64,000 nucleotides of DNA, from assembly GCF_003352915.1 (NCBI RefSeq), contig NZ_CP022314.1:2639272-2703271 (forward strand), given 5' to 3'. The first letter of the stretch is position 1. Each line of letters begins with the position of its first letter. Both the position numbers and the translations under genes were made by a program. Origin of the DNA: Arthrobacter sp. PM3. GTDB taxonomy: Bacteria; Actinomycetota; Actinomycetes; Actinomycetales; Micrococcaceae. The notes beneath the pieces are model-generated. The model saw nothing but the letters and a program-made list of their open reading frames with translations, ran no database searches and was not told the DNA's origin. Shown here one piece after another: positions 15,596-26,184 of this stretch.

Positions 15596-15733
15596 GGAGG
15601 GTCCTTCTTGCGGTCGGGTATGCACTCGGGGCAGGAGATGCCGTGGCCACCCCCTCCGCCTGGCCGGGCACAGTCCTGACCCTTGTGATGGTCCTCAGCC
15701 GGGCCTCCGCCGTCAAGGGCCGAAGGGGCGTGA

Positions 15734-15785
15734 TTGGACGAAAATGGCCGCCAAGCGGAGGTGCTTGGCGGCCATCTTCGTCCAA
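15734..15785. terminator. Long 23-bp hairpin closing the catabolic operon
   Basis: Arms 15734-15756 and 15763-15785 pair along 23 bp with a single G-T-type mismatch around a 6-nt loop. The core is GGCCGCCAAGC / GCTTGGCGGCC, with outer ends TTGGACGAAAA / TTCGTCCAA. It lies just downstream of the ferredoxin gene and just upstream of the serine-hydrolase gene, both on the minus strand. Its right arm resembles the 1696-1735 hairpin. Confidence 0.8.
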
Positions 15786-15828
15786 CGGGCAGGAGCGTCC
15801 GGCGGGAGTCCGGCGGGGAATGGTGCGG

Positions 15829-16173
15829 TCAGCCGGTGGCCCCGGCCGCCGCTGCAACCCCGGCCGCCGCGGCGCCGGCCACCATGGGGTGGTCGCGGTG
15901 GAGGTTCCCCAAGGCCGCGGCGCCCTGCGGGGAGCCCAGGTCCTCGAAGAATTCCACGTTGGCGCGCACATAGTCGAGCCATTCGTCCGGGACGTCGTCC
16001 GCGTAGTAGATGGCCTCGACCGGGCACACCGGATCGCAGGCGCCGCAGTCCACGCACTCGGACGGGTGGATGTAGAGCGAGCGTTCGCCCTCATAGATGC
16101 AGTCCACCGGGCATTCCTCGATGCACGCCTTGTCCTTCACGTCCACGCAGGGCTGCGCGATCACATACGTCAC
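15829..16173 (-). CDS. fdxA: 7Fe ferredoxin (3Fe-4S/4Fe-4S)
   Basis: This 114-residue ferredoxin has cysteines at 9, 17, 21, 25, 40, 43, 46 and 50. The spacing matches Azotobacter-type seven-iron ferredoxins: Cys9, Cys17 and Cys50 for the 3Fe-4S cluster and Cys21, Cys40, Cys43 and Cys46 for the 4Fe-4S cluster. A helical, Ala-rich C-terminal tail follows (about 60-114), as in actinobacterial FdxA. It carries single electrons in the cytosol. The GTG start lies only 6 nt after the aldehyde-dehydrogenase stop, so it is probably the last gene of the seven-gene run. It could take electrons from the FAD oxidoreductase at the head of the operon, or be a general-purpose ferredoxin. Confidence 0.92.
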   Translation of the reverse strand: MTYVIAQPCVDVKDKACIEECPVDCIYEGERSLYIHPSECVDCGACDPVCPVEAIYYADDVPDEWLDYVRANVEFFEDLGSPQGAAALGNLHRDHPMVAGAAAAGVAAAAGATG

Positions 16174-16179
16174 GGCAGG

Positions 16180-17667
16180 TCAGATCCCCGTGTAGACGGT
16201 CTTGCCCCACGTGAAGAAGTCCAGGGCGGACTTGCCCTGCTCGCGGAACGTGTTGGTGGAGGAGTCCTTGACGCCGCCGAACGGCACGTTCAGGTCCAGG
16301 CCCGCCGTCGGACGGTTGACCTTGATGACCCCGGCCTGGGCGCGGGCGGCGAAATCGGTGGCGAGGGTCAGCGAGTCGGTGCAGATGCCGGCGGTGAGAC
16401 CGTAGCGGGAATCGTTGATGGCGGCGAGCCCGGCCTCGTAGTCCGGGACCTCCAGGACCGCCACCACGGGGCCGAAAATCTCCTCGGTCACGGCGGCGTC
16501 GTCAAAGGCAAGACCGGTGAGCACCGCGGGCGGGAACAGGAACCCGGCGTCCGTGCCGCCGTCGAGCTCGCTGTTGTCATAAGCGCCGTGCAGCAGTGTG
16601 GCGCCGCGTTCGACGGCGGAGCGCACCGCCGCCTGGTTCTGCGCGAACTGCTGGGCGCTCACCACAGCCCCCATGGACGCGTCCAGGCCGTCACCGGGGG
16701 TGTAGGCGGCGGCTTCCTCGACCAGCGCGGCGAGGAAGGCGGCGCGGATGCCGGGGGTGACGTAGACGCGGGAGGTCGCGGTGCAGGCCTGGCCGGTCAG
16801 CCCAAACGCGCCGGCGGCGACCACCTTGGCGGCCTTGCGGGGATCGGCGTCGTCCAGGACCAGCACCCCGTTCTTGCCGCCCATTTCCAGCTGCACCCGG
16901 GCCCGGCGGGCGTTCAGGATCTCCTGCAGGCCCAGGCCCACCGCGGTGGATCCGGTGAAGGACATCCCGGCGATCCGCGGGTCGCGGGCCAGGGCGTCGC
17001 CCACCACGCGGCCCTTGCCGTGGACCACGTTGAACACCCCGGCCGGCAGCCCGGCATCCTGCAGGGCACGGGCCAGGTGCGTCGCGGACAGCGGGGTGAG
17101 TTCGGCCGGCTTGATCACCACGGTGTTGCCGCTGATCAGCGCCGGGGCGGCTTTCCAGGCCGGGATCGCGATGGGGAAGTTCCACGGCGTGATGAGCCCG
17201 ACCACGCCCAGCGGCTCGCGCCGGGTGGTGATGGTGGTGTCCGGCAGGCCGCTGGGCAGCACCTCGCCGGTGGCGGCCCAGCCGAGCGAGCCGAAGAACC
17301 GCAGCACGTCCGAGGCGCGCTTGACCTCGCCCTTGGCCTCGGCGAGGGTCTTGCCTTCTTCCCGGACGAGGTCCTCGGCGACGGCGGCCTGGCGTTCGAG
17401 CAGGAGGTCGCCGGCGGCCATGAGGATGGCGCCGCGGGCCGGGGCGGGCAGCGCGGCCCAGCCCGGCTGGGCGGCGGCCGCGGCCGTGATGGCGGCTTCT
17501 GCGTCGGCGGCCGTGCCGCTGGGGGAGAGGGCCGCGAGTTCGCCGGGGCGGGCCGGGTTCATGCGTTCGGTGTCCGCCTCGCCGAGCCAGACGCCGTTGA
17601 TGAGGTGCCGGGCGGTGATCAGGTCCGGGGTGGTGGAGGTGGGGAAATCGGTCGCGGTGGAAGTCAT
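16180..17667 (-). CDS. Aldehyde dehydrogenase (semialdehyde dehydrogenase-like)
   Basis: This 495-residue NAD(P)-dependent aldehyde dehydrogenase has all key residues: Asn163 in TPWNFP, Glu261 in LEMGGKN, Cys295 in GQACTATSR, and EEIFGPVV later. The sequence is of the semialdehyde / benzaldehyde dehydrogenase type, with alpha-ketoglutarate-semialdehyde dehydrogenase as a good guess because a DHDPS-family gene is next to it. It would turn a pathway aldehyde into an acid in the cytosol. It sits 61 bp after the SDR and 6 bp before the ferredoxin, in the same direction, so it is operonic. The real substrate is not known. Confidence 0.9.
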   Translation of the reverse strand: MTSTATDFPTSTTPDLITARHLINGVWLGEADTERMNPARPGELAALSPSGTAADAEAAITAAAAAQPGWAALPAPARGAILMAAGDLLLERQAAVAEDLVREEGKTLAEAKGEVKRASDVLRFFGSLGWAATGEVLPSGLPDTTITTRREPLGVVGLITPWNFPIAIPAWKAAPALISGNTVVIKPAELTPLSATHLARALQDAGLPAGVFNVVHGKGRVVGDALARDPRIAGMSFTGSTAVGLGLQEILNARRARVQLEMGGKNGVLVLDDADPRKAAKVVAAGAFGLTGQACTATSRVYVTPGIRAAFLAALVEEAAAYTPGDGLDASMGAVVSAQQFAQNQAAVRSAVERGATLLHGAYDNSELDGGTDAGFLFPPAVLTGLAFDDAAVTEEIFGPVVAVLEVPDYEAGLAAINDSRYGLTAGICTDSLTLATDFAARAQAGVIKVNRPTAGLDLNVPFGGVKDSSTNTFREQGKSALDFFTWGKTVYTGI

Positions 17668-17728
17668 GATGGTCCCCTTGAATGTTGGGATGGTCAGTGG
17701 TGGGAAGGTGGGTGGCGGGAAGCGGTGC

Positions 17729-18517
17729 CTACAGGCTGCGGATCAGGCCGCCGTCGCAGCGCAGTGCCACGCCGGTGATGTACGACGCCGGGGCGCTGCA
17801 CAGGAACGCGGCGGCGGCGCCGAATTCCTCGGGTTCGCCGTAGCGGCGGGCGGGGATCATCTTGCGGGATTCGAGCTGGATTTCCTCGGCCGAGGTGCCG
17901 CGGCGCTTGGCGGCGGCCTGGTCGAGTTCCGCGACCCGGTCCGTGGCGATGCGGCCGGGAAGGAGCATGTTCACCGTGACGGCGTCCAGGGCGACTTCCG
18001 CGGCGAGGGTCTTGAGGTAGCCGGCCAGCGCGGCGCGGCCGGTGTTGGACACGGCCAGGTTGGGCAGCGGCGCCACGACGCCGCTGGATCCGACGGCCAG
18101 GATCCGGCCCCAGCGCCGTTCCCGCATGCCCGGCACGACGTGCGAGACCAGGGCGTGGTGCGGCCTGACGAGCTGCTCGAACGCGGCGGCGATGTCTTCG
18201 GCGCCGAGCGTGGCGGCCGCCCCGGGCTTCGGCCCCGGACCGTTGAGGACCAGGATGTCGATCGGTCCGAGCTCCGCCACGGTCTGTTCGACGGCGGCGG
18301 CCACCCCGTCGGGGGTGCCCAGGTCCGCCTCGATGGCGACGGCGCCGGGCCCGTAGGCGTCGGTCAGCTCGGTCACGATCTCCTTGGCCTGCACCAGGCG
18401 CCGGCCGGTGACGGCCACGCGGGCCCCTTCGGCGGCGAGGGCGCGGGCGATCGCGAGGCCGAGTCCGCCGGTGGAGGCAGCGACGAAGGCGGTCTTTCCG
18501 CTGATTCCGAGATCCAT
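17729..18517 (-). CDS. Atypical SDR family oxidoreductase lacking YxxxK
   Basis: About 262 residues with an SDR Rossmann fold: AASTGGLG near 13-20, a VLNGPGPKPG segment replacing NNAG, and GSSGVV at the serine strand. The catalytic Tyr-x-x-x-Lys is absent; the aligned stretch reads LAVSNTGRAALAG. This is a recognised divergent SDR group with the GPxPG loop, and its catalytic mechanism is unclear to me. The start ATG at 18517 has a GGAGGA site, and the upstream gene's stop overlaps it as TGATG, so translation is coupled. A longer frame upstream overlaps that gene and is not used. Confidence 0.87.
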   Translation of the reverse strand: MDLGISGKTAFVAASTGGLGLAIARALAAEGARVAVTGRRLVQAKEIVTELTDAYGPGAVAIEADLGTPDGVAAAVEQTVAELGPIDILVLNGPGPKPGAAATLGAEDIAAAFEQLVRPHHALVSHVVPGMRERRWGRILAVGSSGVVAPLPNLAVSNTGRAALAGYLKTLAAEVALDAVTVNMLLPGRIATDRVAELDQAAAKRRGTSAEEIQLESRKMIPARRYGEPEEFGAAAAFLCSAPASYITGVALRCDGGLIRSL

Positions 18518-19470
18518 CAGTTCCTCCCTGCCGCCGTCAGCGCGCCGGTGGTCAGCGTTCCGGCCGGGGCAGGACGCGTGTCCAGGGCCTCGGCGGCCTC
18601 GGCCAGGTGGGCCAGCAGGGCTGGCCGGAGGAGGTCCGGGAATGGCGCCGCCGGGGTCCGCACGCCGGGGTCGGCGATCAGCCCGCGCCGGTACAGGCAC
18701 TCCTTGCGGATGGCCAGGGCGATCCTGGCCTGCTGTTCGAAGTTGATCAGCGGCAGGTAGGGCAGCAGCTCCTGCCGGGCCGCCTCGTAGCCCCCGGCCT
18801 GCCAGGCCCGCACGCAGGCGATGAGCGCCTCGGGGTAGGAGAACCCGGTCATCGCCCCGGCCGCGCCGGCCAGGAGTTCATCCAGCAGGCCTTGGCCGCC
18901 CAGGCCGCCGAACACGGAGACGTCGACGGCGGCGGCGAGTTGGCCGATCGCCACGGAGGTGGGCGGGGCCTCGGCCTTGACCGCGATCACGAAGCCGCAG
19001 GCCTGCACCACGGTGATGAGGGACTCGGTGCTGATGCTGACGCCGCTGGCCAGCGGGTAGTCCTGCAGGACCACCTTGGCGCCGGTGGCGCGGTGGATGG
19101 CGTCCAGGTGCCGGATTACCGTGTCCGGGCGCGGCGAATTGGCCTGGACCATGACGGCCGCCAGGCGCCCGCCGGCGATGGCCTGGGCCGCGAGGACTTC
19201 CTCGATGGCCGGCCGGGTGGCCAGGGCCGTCACCCCCACCACCAGCGGCAGGCCGGTGCATTCGACGGCGGTTTCCAGGACGGCGGCGCGCTCCCCGGCG
19301 GTCAGCGCGGCGGCTTCGCCGAACACGCCCAGGACCGTCAGGCCGGTGGCGCCGATCGCCTCGTAGCGTTCGACGAGCCCGGCCAGGCTGTCCAGGTCAA
19401 GGTCCAGGCTGCTGCCCTGGAACGGGGTGGCGACGACGCCCCACACCCCGGGTGTCAGTGACTCCCGCAT
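18517..19470 (-). CDS. Dihydrodipicolinate synthase (DHDPS/NAL) family lyase
   Basis: This 317-residue TIM-barrel Schiff-base enzyme has the lysine nucleophile at Lys165 (VIAVKAEAPP) and the conserved tyrosine at Tyr138 (QDYPLASG). The phosphate/carboxylate loop that is usually GTTGE reads GVFGE (48-52), so it is unlikely to be true DapA. The family covers aldolases, retro-aldolases and dehydratases acting on 2-keto acids; the neighbouring aldehyde dehydrogenase suggests that it makes or uses an aldehyde. The ATG at 19470 follows AAGGAGA at a good distance. Its stop overlaps the SDR start by one base, and the enoyl-CoA hydratase stop is 61 bp upstream. Confidence 0.88.
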   Translation of the reverse strand: MRESLTPGVWGVVATPFQGSSLDLDLDSLAGLVERYEAIGATGLTVLGVFGEAAALTAGERAAVLETAVECTGLPLVVGVTALATRPAIEEVLAAQAIAGGRLAAVMVQANSPRPDTVIRHLDAIHRATGAKVVLQDYPLASGVSISTESLITVVQACGFVIAVKAEAPPTSVAIGQLAAAVDVSVFGGLGGQGLLDELLAGAAGAMTGFSYPEALIACVRAWQAGGYEAARQELLPYLPLINFEQQARIALAIRKECLYRRGLIADPGVRTPAAPFPDLLRPALLAHLAEAAEALDTRPAPAGTLTTGALTAAGRN

Positions 19471-19531
19471 GGGATTCTCCTTTGCTAGTTGTTCCGGCAT
19501 TCTCAGCGGCTGCATTCTCAGCGGCTGCATT

Positions 19532-20344
19532 TCAGCGTCCGGGCCAGACGGGCGGGCGCTTTTCCTGGAAGGCGCGGACGCCCTCGGCGGAGTCCTCGCT
19601 GTCCAGGGCCGCCATGAGGGCCGGCAGCCGGAGCCCGCGGGCCTCGGCGGCGCTCAGGTGCGAGGTCCGGGTGACCATCTGCTTGACGGCCCGCACGGAG
19701 GTGGGGGCGCAGGCGAGGACCGCCTCCACCCAGCGCTGCACGGCGGCGTCGAGCTCCTCCGCCGGAACCACTTCGTTGACCAGGCCCATGGACTGCATTT
19801 CCGCGGCCGGCGCCTTCCGCCCGGTGAGGAGCATGCCCATCGCCTGGGTGTGCGGGATGCGGCGCACCAGCTGGTGGATGCCGCCGTCGAGCGCCAGACG
19901 CCCGACGCGCGGTTCCGTCAGCCCGAAGCGGGCCGTGCCCGCGGCCACCACGATGTCGGCGCCAAGCACGATCTCCATGCCGCCGCCCAGCGCGTAGCCG
20001 TTGACCCGGGCGATCACCGGGATGTCCAGGCTGGTGCGCAGGCTCAGCCCACCGAAGCCGTTGGGGTCCAGGTCCGCCCAGTACTGCAGGCCGGTCTTGT
20101 CGACGGCGGCGGCGGACATGTCCGCCCCGACGCAGAACGCCCGGGTTCCGGCGCCGGTGATGACGACGGCGCGGACGTCGGGATCGGCTTCCAGCTGGTC
20201 CCAGATGGCGTTGAGCCGGGCCTGGGCGGTCCCGTCGACAGCGTTGAGGACGTGCTGGCGGTCGATCACGACGGTGGCGACGTGGTTCTCGATGCTCAGG
20301 GTGACCTCGTCCACCACCGCGGGGGAGTCTGTCATCGCGGTCAC
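19532..20344 (-). CDS. Enoyl-CoA hydratase/isomerase (crotonase) family protein
   Basis: This 270-residue crotonase has the oxyanion-hole segment RAFCVGAD (69-75), then ALGGGMEIVLGAD with the conserved Glu124 and FGLTEPRVG with Glu144. With both glutamates present, hydration of an enoyl-CoA is plausible. It should act on the CoA ester made by the neighbouring class III CoA-transferase. The GTG start overlaps that gene's stop (GTGA, 4 nt), which argues for coupled translation; an ATG three codons in is the alternative. Carnitine-type CaiB-CaiD pairs have the same two activities, but no other carnitine gene is present. Confidence 0.9.
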   Translation of the reverse strand: MTAMTDSPAVVDEVTLSIENHVATVVIDRQHVLNAVDGTAQARLNAIWDQLEADPDVRAVVITGAGTRAFCVGADMSAAAVDKTGLQYWADLDPNGFGGLSLRTSLDIPVIARVNGYALGGGMEIVLGADIVVAAGTARFGLTEPRVGRLALDGGIHQLVRRIPHTQAMGMLLTGRKAPAAEMQSMGLVNEVVPAEELDAAVQRWVEAVLACAPTSVRAVKQMVTRTSHLSAAEARGLRLPALMAALDSEDSAEGVRAFQEKRPPVWPGR

Positions 20345-21609
20345 CGGAGCACCCCCAGCTGCTGCAGGCGCTCGATGGTCTCGGCGTCGAACCCGTTCTC
20401 CAGGAGCACCTCGACGTTGTGTTCGCCGAGCCGCGGCGCCGCCCGGCGGATGGTGGGCGGGGTGGCGGAGAGCCGGATGGGGGCGTTGAGCATTTTCACG
20501 GTGCCGACACCGGGGTGCTCGGCCTCCACGATCATGCCGTTGGCGTGTGTCTGGGCGTCGGCGAGGGTCTGCTCGAGCGTGTGCACCGGGGCGTTGAGCA
20601 GTCCCCGCTCCTCCAGCCGGGCGGTCCAGTACTCGGTGGTGTTGGTGGCGATGCGCTCGCGGAAGATCGCCTGCAGGGCCGGCTTGTGGCGGAACTGTTG
20701 CTCCAGGGTGGCGAACTCGTCCCGCTGCGTGAGGTCCTCGTCCAGGCCGAGGGCGTCCGAGATCCGGGCCAGCGGGTCCGGGGTGAAGCCGCCCACCATG
20801 CAGACGGCGCCGTCGGTGGTTTCAAAGACGCCGCTGAGCGGCATGGCGCCCCAGTTGACCTCGTAGCCGCGGTTGAGCTGCATGCAGGCCTCCTGCATCT
20901 GCAGGTGCAGCATGGAGTCGTACATGGTCACCTCCACCTTCTGCCCGACGCCGGCGGACTCGCGCGTGCGCAGGGCCAGCAGGATGCCCTGCATGAGGTG
21001 CATGCCGGTGATGTAGTCGCACAGGGTGGTGGGGTAGATCGCCGGTTTCACGTCGTCCGACTCGCGCCGCCACATCACACCGGAGTAGGCCTGGGCGATC
21101 GCGTCCTGGCCGCCCTTGTGCGAGTACGGGCCCTCGGGGCCGAAGCCCGTGCCGGAGGCCCAGATGATGCCCGGGTTCTCCGCCTTGAGGTCCTCGTAGC
21201 CGAAGCCCATCCGCTCCATCACGCCGGAGCGGAAGTTGCTGACCACGACGTCGGCATCGGCCAGGAGCCGGCGGAGCACGGCCTTGCCCTCGTCGGCGCG
21301 GGTGTCCACGGAGACGCTGCGCTTGTTGCGGTTGATGGACAGGAAGATCGGGTTGTCCTGGCCGTCCTTGTCCGGGAAGGAGTTGCGGGAGATGTCCCCG
21401 GCGCCGGGGCGTTCGACCTTGATGATGTCCGCGCCGTAGTCGCCCAGGAGCTGGGTGCAGGACGGGCCCATGAACACCTGGGTGAAGTCCACCACCTTGA
21501 TGCCGTCCAGCGGCAGCGGGGTGCCGGCGCGCTCAGGTGCGGGCGCCGCCGTCGTGCGTTCCTGCCCTGTCCGTTCCTCTGCTGCCCGTTCCTGCGTCAC
21601 CGTGCTCAT
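20341..21609 (-). CDS. CaiB/BaiF family class III CoA-transferase
   Basis: This 422-residue protein has the family start LDGIKVVDFTQVFMGPSCTQLLGDYGADIIKVERPG and the catalytic aspartate Asp169 in KGGQDAIAQAYSG, which forms the aspartyl-CoA thioester in formyl-CoA transferases. It should move CoA from a donor such as succinyl-CoA to a carboxylic acid, activating the pathway substrate. It overlaps the genes on both sides (ATGA with the oxidoreductase, GTGA with the hydratase). The first 33 residues are a low-complexity Glu/Arg/Ala/Pro stretch. The acid substrate is unknown. Confidence 0.92.
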   Translation of the reverse strand: MSTVTQERAAEERTGQERTTAAPAPERAGTPLPLDGIKVVDFTQVFMGPSCTQLLGDYGADIIKVERPGAGDISRNSFPDKDGQDNPIFLSINRNKRSVSVDTRADEGKAVLRRLLADADVVVSNFRSGVMERMGFGYEDLKAENPGIIWASGTGFGPEGPYSHKGGQDAIAQAYSGVMWRRESDDVKPAIYPTTLCDYITGMHLMQGILLALRTRESAGVGQKVEVTMYDSMLHLQMQEACMQLNRGYEVNWGAMPLSGVFETTDGAVCMVGGFTPDPLARISDALGLDEDLTQRDEFATLEQQFRHKPALQAIFRERIATNTTEYWTARLEERGLLNAPVHTLEQTLADAQTHANGMIVEAEHPGVGTVKMLNAPIRLSATPPTIRRAAPRLGEHNVEVLLENGFDAETIERLQQLGVLR

Positions 21610-22988
21610 GCCCCCACCACCGCATCGGCGTCGAGCGTGGCGTTCGACGACGGGACGTCGCCCGGGTCCGCGCCGTGCCGGCGCATCCCCTGCTGGATGT
21701 CCGCGGCGGAGACGTCCCGGACCAGGGTTCCGTTCTGGATGGCGAGCGCGGCGGCGACGCCGACGGCCTGGCCCATGGCCATGCAGGGCGGGATTTCGCG
21801 GGACATCTTCTGCGCCTCCGGGGTCGCGGAGTAGTGCCGGCCGGCCACTAGGAGCTGGTCCACCTCCTTGGGCAGCAGCGAACGGAAGGGGTAGTAGTAG
21901 TCGCGGCCGCGGGCCACGGTGTCGGCGAAGTGCCGGCGGGAGGTGACGTCCTCCTTGGTCATGACGTACTCGCCCTGGAGCAGGCGGGTCTGCCGGACGC
22001 CCATCTGGGACGCGACGTCGAGCATGTAGCAGTTCTCAAAGCCGGGCAGGTGGGCGCGGACGTATTCGACGGCCTCGGTGATCCGGTCCCGGGCGGCGAA
22101 CTCGGCGGCGGTCATGTCCGCCGGGTCGACGCCGTCGTAGCCGGTCATGTGCGGGGCGTTGCACCAGACCACGCCCTCGATGGGGGTTTTGAGCCACCAC
22201 AGTTCCCAGGCGCCGCCGAGGAGGCGCTTGATGGTGCGGTTGATGGCGCGGGCTTCCTTCGGGTTGGCCTGTTCGAAGGCCTCCGCGGCTTTGGTGTCCA
22301 CGTTGCCGAGGCGGAAGACGAGGGTGGTGAGGTAGCTGTCCTTGACGTGGCTGGCGCCGGCGCGGGAGGCGACGTCGATGTCGCCGGTGGTGTCGATGAC
22401 GACGTCCGCCATGAAAGCCTGGGGTCCGGACTTGGTCTCGCAGATAACGCCCTTCATGACCCCGTTGTCCACGATGGGGCGGGAGAACCAGGAGTGCAGG
22501 CGCAGATTGACGCCGGCCTCGCGGACGAGGTCGTTGGAGACCCGCTTCCAGCCGTCGGGGTCGAAGGCCGCGGCGTAGCAGACCGGCTTGGGGGTGGTGT
22601 GGGAGTGGAAGTCGAAGGTGCCGTAGCGGCCCCACTTGTTCCAGAGTTCCTCGGAGGTCTTGCGGTCGTCGGCCGGCGGGACGATGGCCAGGCCAAGCTT
22701 CTGGAGCCGTTCGACGTATTCGGAGACGATTCCGGTGACCGTGATTTCCTGGCCGTTGATCATGTCATCGAGCACCAGGACCATGCCGCCGGAGGCCAGG
22801 CCGCCCAGGGACGAGTAGCGCTCCAGCAAGGTGACGGAGGCGCCGGAGCGGGCCGCGGTGACGGCGGCGGCGACGCCGGCGGGGCCGCCGCCCACCACCA
22901 GGACGTCGGAGCGGGAGATGACCGGGGCGGTGAGGTCCTGCGTGGTGCTGGCCAGGTCAAGGGAGCGCATGGCTGTAGTCGAGTTCAT
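21606..22988 (-). CDS. FAD-dependent oxidoreductase (FAD_oxidored type)
   Basis: This 460-residue flavoprotein starts with a Rossmann dinucleotide fold, VLVVGGGPAGVAAAVTAARSGASVTLLER (29-57; GGGPAG at 33-38), then LGGLASGGMV. A second FAD-contact region is near PKEVDQLLVAGRHYSATPEAQ and MAMGQAVGVAAALA. This is the pattern of the PF12831 oxidoreductases, which are not flavin monooxygenases and usually act in catabolic clusters. It is the first gene of the minus-strand run, and its stop overlaps the CoA-transferase start (ATGA). The ferredoxin at the operon's end could be its electron partner. The operon promoter should be in the 241 bp upstream, which also carry a 12-bp tandem duplication (23106-23129). 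Confidence 0.88.
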   Translation of the reverse strand: MNSTTAMRSLDLASTTQDLTAPVISRSDVLVVGGGPAGVAAAVTAARSGASVTLLERYSSLGGLASGGMVLVLDDMINGQEITVTGIVSEYVERLQKLGLAIVPPADDRKTSEELWNKWGRYGTFDFHSHTTPKPVCYAAAFDPDGWKRVSNDLVREAGVNLRLHSWFSRPIVDNGVMKGVICETKSGPQAFMADVVIDTTGDIDVASRAGASHVKDSYLTTLVFRLGNVDTKAAEAFEQANPKEARAINRTIKRLLGGAWELWWLKTPIEGVVWCNAPHMTGYDGVDPADMTAAEFAARDRITEAVEYVRAHLPGFENCYMLDVASQMGVRQTRLLQGEYVMTKEDVTSRRHFADTVARGRDYYYPFRSLLPKEVDQLLVAGRHYSATPEAQKMSREIPPCMAMGQAVGVAAALAIQNGTLVRDVSAADIQQGMRRHGADPGDVPSSNATLDADAVVGA

Positions 22989-23229
22989 GGGGATCCTTAC
23001 GTTGCCGGAGGACCGCAGAAGCGGCAGCCGGTGAGGTAGAAGACGGTGAAGGAGGAGAAGTTGCCCGGGAGGAGGGCGCGGCGACGCTGACCGCGGACTC
23101 GCCCCGGCAGAGGGTATGGCAGAGGGTATGGCACAGCGCGGCCCGTCGCGGACCTGCTGTTGAGTGTGTCAATGTCTCCGGCGGGCACCTGGGTGCCGGC
23201 GGAGATGGCGGGCGGCTAGGGCCGCCTGA

Positions 23230-23835
23230 TCACCACGCGTGAGGTGCGTTAACCCAAATTGCTACGCAGACCTCTTCGTAGCTGTTCTTGTACCAGTGCG
23301 GCGTGTCCGAGGAGAAGGTGATGGAGTCGCCCTCTTCAAGGGTGTAGCACTCGCCGTCCAGGTAGATGTCTTTCCGGCCGGAGAGGATGATGCCGAATTC
23401 CTCGCCGCTGTGCCGGAACGGGGTGGCGCTGGTGTCGTGGCCTGGCGGACTCACGATCCACTGGGCCTCGAGGGCGCCGTTGAGGTCGGGGGTGAGCAGT
23501 TCATAGACCGCCTCGCCCACGGACTTCTTGGTGACGCCTATGAGGTTTCGCCGCTCGCCCTTGCGGACCACCGGCGACCTGGTTTCTTCCTGTCCAAGGA
23601 AGAACTTCCCTACGGGGATGTCCAGGCCGTGGGCCAGCTGTGCCAGGGTGGTGAAGGACGGATTGGCCAGGCCCCGTTCGATCTGGCTGACGATCGCGGG
23701 GCTGAGGCCGGTGACTTCCGAAAGCTTCGCAAGGGTCATGCCTTTGTCCTTGCGCATGTTGCGGATCTTGTTGCCTACGGTGGCAAGCAGGACGCTCGTG
23801 CCGGCGGGGGATCCCGGGAGGCTCTCGTTGGTCAT
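23230..23835 (-). CDS. XRE-family regulator with C-terminal cupin sensor
   Basis: About 201 residues: an N-terminal helix-turn-helix (21-76; MTLAKLSEVTGLSPAIVSQIERG) and a C-terminal cupin_2 domain (about 125-195; HSGEEFGIILSG, then LEEGDSITFSSDTPH). This architecture is typical of repressors that sense a small catabolite in the cupin. It is divergent from the transporter gene and stands upstream of the FAD-oxidoreductase operon, so it probably controls both. I used the ATG at 23835; an ATG at 23868 also opens the frame but lies in the putative operator region without a ribosome site. The last 17 codons have a near copy on the other strand at 24185-24238. Confidence 0.93.
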   Translation of the reverse strand: MTNESLPGSPAGTSVLLATVGNKIRNMRKDKGMTLAKLSEVTGLSPAIVSQIERGLANPSFTTLAQLAHGLDIPVGKFFLGQEETRSPVVRKGERRNLIGVTKKSVGEAVYELLTPDLNGALEAQWIVSPPGHDTSATPFRHSGEEFGIILSGRKDIYLDGECYTLEEGDSITFSSDTPHWYKNSYEEVCVAIWVNAPHAW

Positions 23836-23868
23836 GGTCCGTCTTTCTCTGGATGAGTTGACCTGCAT

Positions 23869-23962
23869 AACTATAGTGAAAATTTTTACCGAATCAATGG
23901 TTTTTTGAAGATTCTTGAGTTTTCACTTAACCGTTGACTCTGTGAAGATCTTCAATATAGTT
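23869..23962. promoter_or_regulatory. AT-rich control region with three copies of a TGAAGATCTTCA-like palindrome
   Basis: Between the divergent regulator and transporter genes there is a sharply AT-rich stretch. It holds a perfect 12-bp palindrome TGAAGATCTTCA (23943-23954), a near copy TGAAGATTCTTGA (23906-23918) and a second near copy TGAAAATTTTTA (23877-23888). The outer two lie in a larger inverted repeat (23869-23888 against 23943-23962, 16 of 20 matching) that ends in AACTATA. The most economical reading is operator sites for the XRE-cupin regulator next to its own promoter. The binding is inferred. Confidence 0.6.
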
Positions 23963-24088
23963 GTGTGAGCTGCAGCACTCGGAACCGACGCACTGCGAAC
24001 GGGATGAGGTGGCAACGGCCTTCTGGCGGAAGGCCCGCCCGGTCCGTCCCATCGGTCCGTCACCCCGCTCGTATCCCGACGTGGTGCA

Positions 24089-24238
24089 GTGACATCTGCC
24101 AAGCCATCCGCAGAACTTAATGTCGGCCGGTCAACGAAGGGCATGCTCCTTGTTGCCGGGCTGGATGGCCCGTTTGCATTCAAGCGCTACGAAGAGGCAT
24201 GCGTAGCTATCTGGGCTAACCCACCTCCCATGGGGTGA
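24089..24238 (+). pseudogene. Remnant of an XRE-cupin regulator 3' end
   Basis: The frame from a GTG at 24089 to a TGA at 24236-24238 encodes 49 residues. Its end, RYEEACVAIWANPPPMG (24185-24235), matches the C-terminus of the regulator at 23230-23835 (SYEEVCVAIWVNAPHAW), and the DNA of the two stretches is clearly alike over about 50 bp. The preceding part does not resemble the regulator. The best reading is the last fragment of a second cupin regulator, left by a duplication or rearrangement, lying 120 bp before the transporter start. The 49-residue frame is unlikely to be a working gene. Confidence 0.6.
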
Positions 24239-24357
24239 ACCGGTCCCGCCCGTGGACCAAGCCAAACGATAGTTTCGATTGCCGGTCGCCCCCACCCGGG
24301 GCTCCCGCCGGTGATCCATACCCTCACGCACCCCGACGGTGCGGGGGAAGGAAAATC

Positions 24358-25662
24358 ATGACTGACACTGTCGTCAAGACTGACCTGGAGAGCGGCCGCA
24401 CGTCCCGGCTCTCTCCGGAAATCCGCCGTGGGCTGCTCGGCCTCGGACTGGGCAACACCTTGGAGTGGTACGACTGGATGGTCTTTGGCCTGTTGTCGGC
24501 CTTCATCGGGCCCAAGTTCTTCCCGTCCCATGACCCTGTCGCCGCGACCCTGAGCGCCCTGGCCGTCTTCGCCGTCGGCTTCGCGTTCCGTCCCCTGGGC
24601 GGAATCCTGCTTGGCACCTTCGCCGACAGGATCGGCCGGCGCCGGGTGATGCTCTGGTCCATCATGATGATGGCTGTCACCACCCTGATCATTGCCGTGT
24701 CGCCGACCTACGACCAGATCGGCCCCGCAGCCGGCGTCATCCTGCTGGTCTGCCGCATCGTCCAGGGAATCTCCACCGGCGTGGAAGCCCCGCTGTCCAC
24801 CGCCCACGCCGTCGAGCTCGTGCCCGAGGGCCGCGAGGGCTTTGTCGCTGGCATCATCTCCTTCTACGTCAACATCGGCATCCTGCTCGCCTCGCTGGTC
24901 AGCTACCTCTGCAGCCTCGTGCTGGGCGGATCCGTCATGGCCGACTGGGGGTGGCGGGTGCCGTTCGTCGTCGGAGCGGCCTTCGGCTTCGTCGTCGTCT
25001 ACCTGCGGCGGACGCTTCCTGAAACCATGAAGCCCGAGGAACTGGCGAACAACTCCGCCAAAACGGTCTGGGGCGGGGTGCGCAAGCACTGGCTCAGCGT
25101 CCTGGCCATCACCTTCGTCGTCGGCGCGGCACAGGCCTACAACTACGCCTGGAACACCGGGCTCCCGACGGCGGCCCGAAGCGGCTTCAAGGAGGACGCC
25201 ACCGCTGTCTTCGCGCTGACCACGGTCCTCGGCGTCGTGCTGGTGATCGGAAGCCTCATCATCAGCAAGGTCGCCGACGGCAAGTCGATGTCCAAATGGT
25301 TCCTGGTCACCCGCGCTCTGGCCATTCCGTCCGTGTTCCTGATGCTGATGTACGTCAAGCCCGGGATTGCCGGCTTCGCGGCCGTGCTCCTCGGCGGCTC
25401 GGTGGTGCTGGTCCTGAACATGACCCTGTACAACGTGGTCACCAGCTCCCTCATGCCCAAGGGCTGCCGCGGTGCCGGAACGGCCCTGGGTTACGGTGTG
25501 GGCGTCGCGCTCTTCGGCGGCACCGCCTCCTACCTGCTGGTCTGGCTCCAGTCCATCAACGCGTCCTGGATCTTCCCCGTGTACGTGGCCGTCCTGTCCG
25601 CGCTCAGCATCGTCTTCTACGTGCTTGCGCGGCGGAAGCACGGCCTCTTTATTGGGAATTAG
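24358..25662 (+). CDS. MFS transporter, metabolite:H+ symporter (MHS) type
   Basis: This 434-residue protein has 12 predicted membrane segments. The opening GLGNTLEWYDWMVFG is the hallmark of the MHS group of proton symporters for organic acids and zwitterions (e.g. proline/betaine, citrate and shikimate carriers). FADRIGRRRVM is the family loop 2-3 motif. It should import the substrate of the neighbouring catabolic genes. The start ATG has a GGAAGGAAAA site 7 nt upstream; a longer frame upstream (from 24235) lacks one. It is divergent from the XRE-cupin regulator and followed 27 bp later by a deaminase-like gene in the same direction. Confidence 0.92.
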   Translation: MTDTVVKTDLESGRTSRLSPEIRRGLLGLGLGNTLEWYDWMVFGLLSAFIGPKFFPSHDPVAATLSALAVFAVGFAFRPLGGILLGTFADRIGRRRVMLWSIMMMAVTTLIIAVSPTYDQIGPAAGVILLVCRIVQGISTGVEAPLSTAHAVELVPEGREGFVAGIISFYVNIGILLASLVSYLCSLVLGGSVMADWGWRVPFVVGAAFGFVVVYLRRTLPETMKPEELANNSAKTVWGGVRKHWLSVLAITFVVGAAQAYNYAWNTGLPTAARSGFKEDATAVFALTTVLGVVLVIGSLIISKVADGKSMSKWFLVTRALAIPSVFLMLMYVKPGIAGFAAVLLGGSVVLVLNMTLYNVVTSSLMPKGCRGAGTALGYGVGVALFGGTASYLLVWLQSINASWIFPVYVAVLSALSIVFYVLARRKHGLFIGN

Positions 25663-25689
25663 GAACGGGAATTAGGAAGGGGAGCGGAC

Positions 25690-26139
25690 GTGATCTCTTT
25701 TGACCTCAGCGACGCTGACGTGGAGCTCTATGAGGCCGCCCGCCGGATGCTCCTGACCGCCCACCACAGCGAGAACCACCGGGTGGCCGCGGCGATGCGG
25801 GGCGCGTCCGGGGCCATCTACCTCGGGCTGCACATCGGCTCAAAACGCCTCAATGTGTGCGCCGAATCCAGCGCCCTGGCCAACGCCCGCATGGCGCAGG
25901 AGGCATCGATCCGGTCCGTGGTGGCCGTAAGCATGGACGGGCACACAGAGCCGCAGGTCACGAATCCGTGCGGGCTCTGCCGGGAACTGCTGCGTGCCTA
26001 TGGAGCCGGGATCACCGTCCTGGTCGATGCCGCGGGCGAGGTAGGCAAAGTCGGCCTCGCAGAACTACTGCCCTTCCCCTGGCTGCGCGCCGCGGAAACG
26101 GAGTGGGAAACCCTTCCGCCCCGCGTGAACCCCATCTGA
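25690..26139 (+). CDS. Cytidine-deaminase-like zinc hydrolase
   Basis: This 149-residue protein has the zinc-dependent deaminase signature: CAES at 57-60 (zinc ligand Cys57, catalytic Glu59) and PCGLC at 93-97 (ligands Cys94 and Cys97). This three-cysteine pattern fits the small tetrameric cytidine / blasticidin-S deaminase family. Being read with an organic-solute transporter in a catabolic locus, it probably deaminates a pathway compound rather than salvaging cytidine. The GTG start follows AAGGGGAG. A perfect hairpin terminator lies right after the stop. Confidence 0.85.
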   Translation: MISFDLSDADVELYEAARRMLLTAHHSENHRVAAAMRGASGAIYLGLHIGSKRLNVCAESSALANARMAQEASIRSVVAVSMDGHTEPQVTNPCGLCRELLRAYGAGITVLVDAAGEVGKVGLAELLPFPWLRAAETEWETLPPRVNPI

Positions 26140-26142
26140 CCC

Positions 26143-26184
26143 GCAGCAGGGGCCGTTCTGGGCACTCAGAACGGCCCCTGCTGC
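26143..26184 (+). terminator. Perfect 18-bp hairpin after the deaminase gene
   Basis: Arms 26143-26160 and 26167-26184 pair perfectly (core GGGGCCGTTCTG / CAGAACGGCCCC) around a 6-nt loop. It closes the transporter-deaminase transcript. No long T-run follows. Confidence 0.8.

What the first reader, a model, noticed from the sequence alone, without database searches (positions are those of the whole stretch)
15734..26184. Unrecognised catabolic locus: CoA-transferase, hydratase, DHDPS-like lyase, semialdehyde dehydrogenase, FAD oxidoreductase and ferredoxin, with XRE-cupin control
Seven genes overlap or nearly touch (ATGA, GTGA and TGATG junctions, a 6-bp gap before the ferredoxin) and end at a 23-bp hairpin. 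The other side of the regulator encodes an MHS solute symporter and a zinc deaminase. The order suggests import, deamination, CoA activation of an acid, hydration, C-C or C-O cleavage by a Schiff-base lyase, aldehyde oxidation, and flavin/ferredoxin redox. Each family is known, but I know no described pathway with this set. A nitrogen-containing organic acid is a reasonable guess for the substrate.
Basis: partly seen in the sequence, partly recalled or inferred. Interest (0 to 1): 0.75.

Follow-up and report, generated by a model that had tools for sequence, protein, structure and literature searches.

The report
Undescribed operon for eating N-heterocyclic acids
A soil bacterium carries a patchily distributed but tightly conserved set of genes that probably imports and breaks down a nitrogen-containing ring acid through coenzyme-A chemistry; no described pathway was found to match it, and its exact food molecule is still unknown.

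Summary
A minus-strand operon (FAD oxidoreductase, CoA-transferase III, enoyl-CoA hydratase, DHDPS-like lyase, SDR, aldehyde dehydrogenase, FdxA-type ferredoxin) lies beside an XRE-cupin regulator, a divergent MFS importer and a CDA-fold deaminase. In the 80 best of 558 related GTDB stretches, regulator, FAD protein, CoA-transferase and hydratase occur in 80/80, all seven core genes in 68/80, in the same order in 67/68. Importers interchange: MFS in 76, an NMT1/THI5-type ABC transporter alone in 4, neither in 0. A deaminase lies within the held stretch in 31/80, where about 0.7 ADA-family genes would be expected by chance and 11 are seen; with plasmid loci, four deaminase families serve one core. 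CDA-like ones lack the ribose loop; 10 of 11 ADA-like ones lack the purine-contact Asp. This favours a non-purine amino-N-heteroaromatic substrate, probably a carboxylate. Deamination is optional: 49/80 show none. A palindromic operator occurs twice in the genome, both times between the divergent genes. Hydroxyproline, carnitine, mesaconate and glucarate enzyme tests were not met. Substrate unidentified; thiamine's pyrimidine acid is a low-confidence guess.

The parts
15733..15786 (-). 24-bp hairpin at the end of the operon
   Evidence: fold -49 kcal/mol, z -9.4; no T-run
15829..16173 (-). FdxA-type ferredoxin
   Evidence: NCBIfam NF045480 FdxA_Actino 177.1 bits, cut-off 125
16180..17667 (-). 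aldehyde dehydrogenase, nearest 2,5-dioxovalerate (2-oxoglutarate semialdehyde) dehydrogenases but below their cut-offs
   Evidence: NF052305 504.7 of 750, NF042993 448 of 770, next function (betaine aldehyde) 343 bits; GQ[AR]CTA in 85 of 86 rows
17729..18517 (-). short-chain dehydrogenase/reductase
   Evidence: PF13561, PF00106
18517..19470 (-). DHDPS-superfamily lyase; Lys kept (VKAEAP), Gln in place of the DHDPS Tyr; upstream start 19530 possible
   Evidence: PF00701; nearest solved 3dz1 (1.5e-27), then L-2-keto-3-deoxyarabonate dehydratase 3fkk (4.2e-20)
19532..20344 (-). enoyl-CoA hydratase (crotonase) with both catalytic Glu positions
   Evidence: PF00378; GGG[MFL]E in 101 of 101 and FGL[TP]E in 96 of 101 rows
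20341..21609 (-). CoA-transferase family III (CaiB/BaiF) with the catalytic-Asp motif
   Evidence: PF02515 369.9 bits; GGQD in 101 of 101 rows
21606..22988 (-). FAD-dependent oxidoreductase, PF12831
   Evidence: PDB sequence matches at E 2e-5 or weaker, nearly all confined to the N-terminal FAD-binding part; AF2 model nearest geranylgeranyl-reductase and group-A monooxygenase folds, TM about 0.4-0.5
23230..23868 (-). XRE-family regulator with cupin domain
   Evidence: PF01381 + PF07883; 80 of 80 relatives
23872..23889 (-). operator-like palindrome, by eye between -35 and -10 of the regulator promoter
23942..23959 (+). second copy of the palindrome, by eye in the importer's promoter
   Evidence: only these two sites in the 4.35-Mb genome at up to 2 mismatches
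24358..25662 (+). MFS importer nearest the metabolite:H+ symporter family
   Evidence: PF07690, PF00083 above cut-off; TIGR00883 below cut-off
25690..26139 (+). CDA-fold zinc deaminase, nearest solved blasticidin-S deaminases; ribose-binding N-x-E-N absent
   Evidence: PF00383 27.3 of 25 bits
26143..26184 (+). 19-bp hairpin after the deaminase

Best explanation
This is an XRE-cupin-controlled, patchily distributed catabolic operon for a non-purine N-heteroaromatic carboxylate, most likely an oxo-/amino-pyrimidine type acid. Steps, all inferred from families, none measured: (1) H+-coupled MFS import, replaced in some relatives by an NMT1/THI5-type ABC importer; (2) optional hydrolytic deamination of the amino form to the oxo form; (3) the CoA-transferase activates the carboxylate; (4) the FAD protein, perhaps with the ferredoxin, reduces or hydroxylates the ring (order of 3 and 4 open); (5) the hydratase adds water to the resulting enoyl-CoA, leading to ring opening; (6) the Schiff-base lyase dehydrates or cleaves the opened chain; (7) SDR and ALDH oxidise the product to a central acid such as 2-oxoglutarate. 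The regulator controls both divergent promoters through a GTGAARATYTTCAC palindrome. A concrete candidate substrate is 4-amino-2-methylpyrimidine-5-carboxylate from thiamine (perhaps 0.15 on its own).
For: Regulator, FADox, CoAT and ECH in 80/80 and DHDPS/SDR/ALDH in 76/75/70 of 80 stretches (identity floors of 40-60% by gene, 40% coverage), order kept in 67 of 68 full sets. An importer in every one: MFS 76 (2 of these also ABC), ABC only 4. The ABC binding protein (Chelatococcus) is PF09084; best solved match is 3ix1, an N-formyl-4-amino-5-aminomethyl-2-methylpyrimidine-binding protein (4.1e-18), with THI5/THI13 also matched. Four deaminase families with the same core. ADA-family genes: 109 in about 257 Mb of 60 class genomes (my sums), so about 0.7 expected in the roughly 1.6 Mb of the 80 stretches; 11 found. 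CDA rows keep zinc motifs in 23 of 23, lack the ribose loop, and keep an Arg there in 27 of 27. ADA-like: 10 of 11 lack the second Asp of the Asp-Asp pair seen in the four solved relatives aligned. CoA-transferase implies a carboxylate. Operator: 55 of 78 regulator-upstream regions with at most 2 mismatches, against 27 of 1580 random windows.
Against: 49 of 80 stretches hold none of the four deaminases. NCBIfam's adenosine-deaminase model TIGR01430 is passed by 3 of the 4 linked ADA-like proteins tested (L087, L088, L095; L109 is below), so a curated model calls them adenosine deaminases. Three of the 11 ADA-like genes (L092, L103, L108) lie about 4-8 kb from FADox, not clearly in the operon. 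Residue roles (mouse ADA D19 and D296, CDA N-x-E-N) are recalled. NMT1-family proteins also bind taurine and sulfonates (weak matches). CDA orthologues (46-53%) also sit in a different cluster with a BMP (PnrA-like) transporter in 4 genomes without this operon, which would fit a nucleoside-like substrate. DHDPS-like genes near Proteobacterial copies belong to other subfamilies. No measurement links any compound to the locus.
Confidence: 0.4

Rival explanations
1. The core handles a nitrogen-free organic acid; FADox desaturates it, CoAT and ECH act as in beta-oxidation, and the deaminases serve a separate, co-located use.
For: None of the four deaminase types in 49 of 80 stretches; importer nearest PRK10406 (KgtP, name recalled) and TcuC models, below both cut-offs; the core occurs without adjacent DHDPS/SDR/ALDH in Chelatococcus (a DHDPS-family gene lies about 9 kb past the hydratase) and Agrobacterium.
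Against: In 31 of 80 stretches and in 8 of 12 plasmid loci a deaminase of one of four families lies near the core, in L095 inside the operon; 11 ADA-family genes against about 0.7 expected.
Confidence: 0.25
2. The locus degrades a nucleoside-like compound: the deaminase acts on the base, and the C5 sugar acid runs through a keto-deoxy-acid dehydratase (DHDPS) and a 2-oxoglutarate-semialdehyde dehydrogenase.
For: Lyase near L-2-keto-3-deoxyarabonate dehydratases with Gln in the same place as the lyase beside an annotated L-arabinonate dehydratase; ALDH nearest 2,5-dioxovalerate dehydrogenase; 3 of 4 tested ADA-like proteins pass the adenosine-deaminase model; the CDA orthologue lies with a BMP transporter, an FAA-hydrolase-family protein, SDR and two ALDHs in 4 genomes; a BMP binding protein lies about 9 kb from FADox in Ensifer.
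Against: The CDA lacks the ribose loop; no nucleoside hydrolase or phosphorylase among the ten genes; CoAT and ECH have no role in that route.
Confidence: 0.17
3. A known pathway in disguise (hydroxyproline, carnitine, itaconate/mesaconate, glucarate).
For: Shared superfamilies: DHDPS + ALDH (hydroxyproline, glucarate), CaiB/CaiD (carnitine), CaiB (mesaconate).
Against: No proline racemase/epimerase family match in the genome (PF05544); carnitine, mesaconate and glucarate models not met, and no citrate-lyase-type Pfam match among the ten genes.
Confidence: 0.04

Closest known systems
trans-4-hydroxyproline to 2-oxoglutarate pathway (PMC4113996, passages seen)
   Same: DHDPS-superfamily dehydratase/deaminase followed by an aldehyde dehydrogenase that makes 2-oxoglutarate; a flavin oxidase upstream
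   Different: needs a proline-racemase-family epimerase (no match in this genome) and a DAAO-family oxidase (here PF12831 is the best family by far); has no CoA-transferase or hydratase
L-arabinose non-phosphorylative pathway (L-2-keto-3-deoxyarabonate dehydratase + semialdehyde dehydrogenase)
   Same: lyase and ALDH are near these enzymes
   Different: no lactonase or sugar-acid dehydratase among the ten genes; SDR specificity unknown; CoA steps unexplained
carnitine Cai system
   Same: class III CoA-transferase plus crotonase
   Different: CaiB 120.9 of 413 and CaiD 165.4 of 500 bits; no acyl-CoA dehydrogenase among the ten genes; a DHDPS lyase is present
thiamine-pyrimidine (ThiY/THI5-type) ABC uptake
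   Same: the alternative ABC importer's binding protein is in the NMT1/THI5 family with 3ix1 as best solved match
   Different: salvage, not catabolism (recalled); ligand not tested

Membership tests
trans-4-hydroxyproline catabolism | proline racemase/4-hydroxyproline epimerase superfamily protein | tested here: not met
   PF05544: 0 matches in the genome
trans-4-hydroxyproline catabolism | DHDPS-family deaminase plus 2-oxoglutarate semialdehyde dehydrogenase | tested here: inconclusive
   DHDPS superfamily met; ALDH nearest but below the curated cut-off, 504.7 of 750 bits
carnitine (Cai) pathway | CaiB and CaiD equivalogs | tested here: not met
   120.9 of 413 and 165.4 of 500 bits
itaconate/mesaconate pathway | succinyl-CoA:mesaconate CoA-transferase equivalog and a citramalyl-CoA lyase | tested here: not met
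   210.3 of 700 bits; no citrate-lyase-type Pfam match among the ten genes
D-glucarate pathway | 5-dehydro-4-deoxyglucarate dehydratase (KdgD) | tested here: not met
   20.5 of 278 bits
L-2-keto-3-deoxyarabonate dehydratase | makes 2-oxoglutarate semialdehyde | not testable with these tools
   only sequence nearness (4.2e-20 to 3fkk)
MHS metabolite:H+ symporters (TIGR00883) | score over NCBIfam cut-off | tested here: not met
   269.9 of 443.45 bits; MFS_1 met
cytidine deaminase | zinc motifs CAE and PCxxC | tested here: met
   window protein aligned to solved relatives; 23 of 23 related rows
cytidine deaminase | ribose-binding N-x-E-N loop (recalled) | tested here: not met
   H-I-G-S in its place; same kind of loop in relatives
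adenosine deaminase (linked genes of relatives) | TIGR01430 cut-off 216.55 bits | tested here: inconclusive
   3 of 4 tested pass, yet 10 of 11 lack the second Asp of Asp-Asp
FdxA actinobacterial ferredoxin | score over NCBIfam cut-off | tested here: met
   177.1 bits, cut-off 125

The most novel reading that the evidence does not exclude
A previously undescribed CoA-dependent aerobic route for N-heteroaromatic carboxylates: an aminopyrimidine-type acid (for example the thiamine pyrimidine acid) is deaminated, turned into a CoA thioester, dearomatised by a PF12831 flavoprotein with a ferredoxin and hydrated, with the deaminase recruited at least four times from different families onto one conserved core.
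Probability: 0.25. Interest if true: 0.8.

Novelty: new variant of a known kind. Interest (0 to 1): 0.5.

Why it matters
The core was found in Actinobacteria (among them Arthrobacter, Rhodococcus, Nocardia, Pseudonocardia, Streptomyces) and in Proteobacteria such as Rhizobium and Ensifer, including R. johnstonii 3841. It marks a substrate common enough to be worth a dedicated operon, and the comparison narrows the substrate class enough for a small feeding screen. If the aminopyrimidine reading is right, it would give genes to the catabolism of a vitamin moiety or related heterocycles, which to my recollection is poorly known genetically. PF12831 flavoproteins are numerous and mostly uncharacterised (recalled), so an assignment here would carry over to many annotations.

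Tried and rejected
Literature: ten paper searches listed no paper that I could recognise as describing this gene set; four found no paper at all, and two held more papers than were listed (115 held, 20 listed; 16 held, 15 listed). Listings with starts of abstracts were seen, plus found passages in PMC4113996 and PMC4149787 (it names only pRL110037, taken to be another gene). Locus tags guessed for R. johnstonii 3841 found nothing on this operon, which is weak: the tags were guesses and supplements were not searched.

Substrate by structure: the FADox model (pLDDT 74.4, 29 sequences) matched only general FAD folds at TM about 0.4-0.5, including geranylgeranyl reductases and a Bacillus niacini monooxygenase with bound 2,6-dihydroxypyridine; too weak to choose reductase or hydroxylase.

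A beta-alanine:pyruvate-like transaminase beside the Caballeronia copy (named by me from the sequence) was dropped: an intervening reverse-strand regulator-like ORF makes it look a separate unit. The creatinase-like gene downstream in Pseudarthrobacter and biotin-synthesis-like genes upstream in Paenarthrobacter-type loci (named by me) look like lineage-specific neighbours.

Adenosine/adenine as substrate was considered because of the linked ADA-family genes and disfavoured for 10 of 11 of them on the missing purine-contact Asp; L095 keeps it, and 3 of 4 tested pass the curated adenosine-deaminase model.

Limits: the 80 stretches are the best of 558, so close relatives dominate; some are cut by contig ends (ALDH not found in 10, SDR in 5, DHDPS in 4), so absence may be an end or divergence. 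'Linked' means within the held stretch, up to 10 kb from FADox. ORF starts in my scripts are mechanical. L132 and L133 were fetched but not in the deaminase count. The expected 0.7 ADA-family genes uses hand sums and an approximate total length.

Full report
Observation. Pfam assigns FAD_oxidored, CoA_transf_3, ECH_1, DHDPS, SDR, Aldedh, Fer4, HTH_3 + Cupin_2, MFS_1 and dCMP_cyt_deam_1. Among the NCBIfam matches shown, only the ferredoxin passes a curated cut-off (for four proteins only the best 25 matches are listed), so the other nine have no curated specific name there.

Conservation. The window's genome is a 4.35-Mb, 99.99% complete assembly. The FADox gene is in 10 of 36 other same-genus genomes and 0 of 22 same-order ones, and in 17 of 295 sampled family genomes including the window's own, so the operon is patchy. 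All 10 same-genus copies keep regulator, importer, FADox, CoAT, ECH, DHDPS, SDR, ALDH and ferredoxin; three of the 10 also keep the deaminase. A GTDB scan found 558 stretches encoding a relative of FADox and kept the best 80. In those 80: regulator, FADox, CoAT and ECH 80, DHDPS 76, SDR 75, ALDH 70, ferredoxin 41; all seven core genes in 68, collinear in 67 of 68. The plasmid copies that I opened in Rhizobium, Ensifer, Agrobacterium, Roseibium, Paracoccus, Chelatococcus and Caballeronia keep FADox-CoAT, ECH, a ferredoxin and an ABC importer (FADox about 57-61% to the window's in the rows; in Agrobacterium an unannotated gap of ECH size follows CoAT and ECH itself was not checked).

Interchangeable importers. 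Of the 80 stretches, 76 have the MFS importer (2 of these also the ABC one), 4 have only an NMT1/THI5-type ABC transporter and none has neither. The binding protein (Chelatococcus copy) is PF09084; its best solved match is the thiamine-pyrimidine-type binding protein 3ix1 (4.1e-18), then 4nmy, with taurine-binding and THI5/THI13 proteins weaker; NCBIfam gives only weak sulfonate/taurine matches.

Interchangeable deaminases. Of the 80 stretches, 20 carry the CDA-like gene, 11 an adenosine-deaminase-family gene and 49 none of the four types; none has two. Control: 60 genomes of the class hold 109 ADA-family matches in about 257 Mb (my sums), so about 0.7 would be expected in the roughly 1.6 Mb of the 80 stretches. 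In L095 the gene lies inside the operon; in L092, L103 and L108 it is about 4-8 kb from FADox. Plasmid copies bring two more families: dCMP/ComEB-like in Chelatococcus and Roseibium, and a TRZ/ATZ-type amidohydrolase in Ensifer, Rhizobium and Agrobacterium; 8 of the 12 plasmid loci (L120-L131) have one. Six of the 11 ADA-like proteins were checked by Pfam, all PF00962; of four scanned by NCBIfam, three pass the adenosine-deaminase model TIGR01430 and L109 does not. In the same-genus set, close CDA orthologues (81% or more) occur only in genomes with the operon (3 of 3).

What the deaminases recognise. The CDA-like proteins keep CAE and PCGxC (23 of 23 rows), but the loop that in cytidine deaminases reads N-x-E-N, contacting ribose (role recalled), reads mostly H-I/L-G-S/A here; an Arg in that loop is kept in 27 of 27 rows, as would suit an anionic substrate (inference). 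The linked ADA-like proteins keep the H-x-H, PH-x-GE and metal-Asp motifs, but 10 of 11 have Cys, Gly, Ala or Ile where the four solved relatives aligned show the second Asp of Asp-Asp, which contacts purine N7 in the mouse enzyme (recalled); the position of the Asp that contacts the ribose 5'-OH (recalled) is Glu in 11 of 11. These changes point away from nucleosides and purines and toward a free, non-purine amino-heterocycle. This is inference from sequence and stands against the curated name from TIGR01430.

Enzymes. The hydratase keeps both catalytic Glu positions (101 of 101 and 96 of 101 rows), the lyase its Lys motif (74 of 90; 16 did not match the pattern), the ALDH its Cys motif (85 of 86) and the CoA-transferase its GGQD motif (101 of 101). 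The lyase has Gln where canonical DHDPS has Tyr, as does the lyase beside an annotated L-arabinonate dehydratase gene in Ensifer. The flavoprotein has no close solved relative.

Regulation. A palindrome TRAARATYTTYA occurs twice in the window, both times between the divergent genes (0 in 100 shuffles); the longer form GTRAARATYTTCAMTATA occurs nowhere else in the genome at up to 2 mismatches. Upstream of the regulator gene in relatives, 55 of 78 regions hold GTGAARATYTTCAC with at most 2 mismatches, against 27 of 1580 random windows from the same loci; upstream of FADox 0 of 80 and of the MFS gene 1 of 76. So the operon is probably read from the regulator's own promoter. The -35/-10 placement is by eye.

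Result against the reading. In four family genomes without the operon, the CDA orthologue lies in another cluster with a BMP (PnrA-like) ABC transporter, an FAA-hydrolase-family protein, a 2-hydroxyacid dehydrogenase, SDR and two ALDHs, with a glyoxalase-family protein in at least two of them (family names checked on L138/L139 only). This may mean a nucleoside-like substrate shared by both clusters; it is my main alternative after a nitrogen-free acid.

Comparison with known pathways. Hydroxyproline catabolism as described in PMC4113996 (passages seen) needs a proline-racemase-family epimerase, for which this genome has no match. Carnitine, mesaconate and glucarate enzyme models are not met. 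Ten paper searches listed no description of this set; the library is open-access only.

Verdict. A real, well conserved and apparently undescribed catabolic operon. Substrate class: amino-/oxo-N-heteroaromatic carboxylate, confidence 0.40; named substrate unproven.

Noticed in passing
L136:8737-9186, L137:9149-9604, L138:5322-5726, L139:9489-9944: The CDA-like deaminase (46-53% identical) also sits in a second catabolic cluster with a BMP-type ABC transporter, FAA-hydrolase-family protein, 2-hydroxyacid dehydrogenase, SDR and two aldehyde dehydrogenases in four family genomes that lack this operon.
   Followed up: partly
window:23872-23959: Two near-identical palindromes, one in each divergent promoter, found nowhere else in the genome at up to 2 mismatches.
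   Followed up: yes
window:19497-19526: An exact 15-bp tandem duplication just upstream of the DHDPS start, next to an alternative upstream ATG at 19530.
   Followed up: no
window:14384-15625: Serine beta-lactamase-family protein (PF00144, 140 bits) on the same strand just beyond the operon's end.
   Followed up: no
window:26310-26825: DUF4383 protein of unknown function next to the deaminase hairpin.
   Followed up: no
L084:2091 and L101:6636; L085:7292 and L086:7291: A second, 51-53% identical CoA-transferase paralogue near the same operon in four Actinobacteria, in L084 beside the ABC importer and a ferredoxin.
   Followed up: no
L069:18769, L070:17653, L071:18801, L072:18758, L097:18953, L111:18775: In Pseudarthrobacter-type loci a creatinase-like gene (named by me from the sequence) lies downstream, with a second MFS symporter (31-33% to the window's); possibly a catabolic island.
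   Followed up: no
L128:10646-16283 (Rhizobium johnstonii 3841, pRL11): The core lies on pRL11 of this strain with an amidohydrolase-type deaminase, giving a possible laboratory host for tests.
   Followed up: partly
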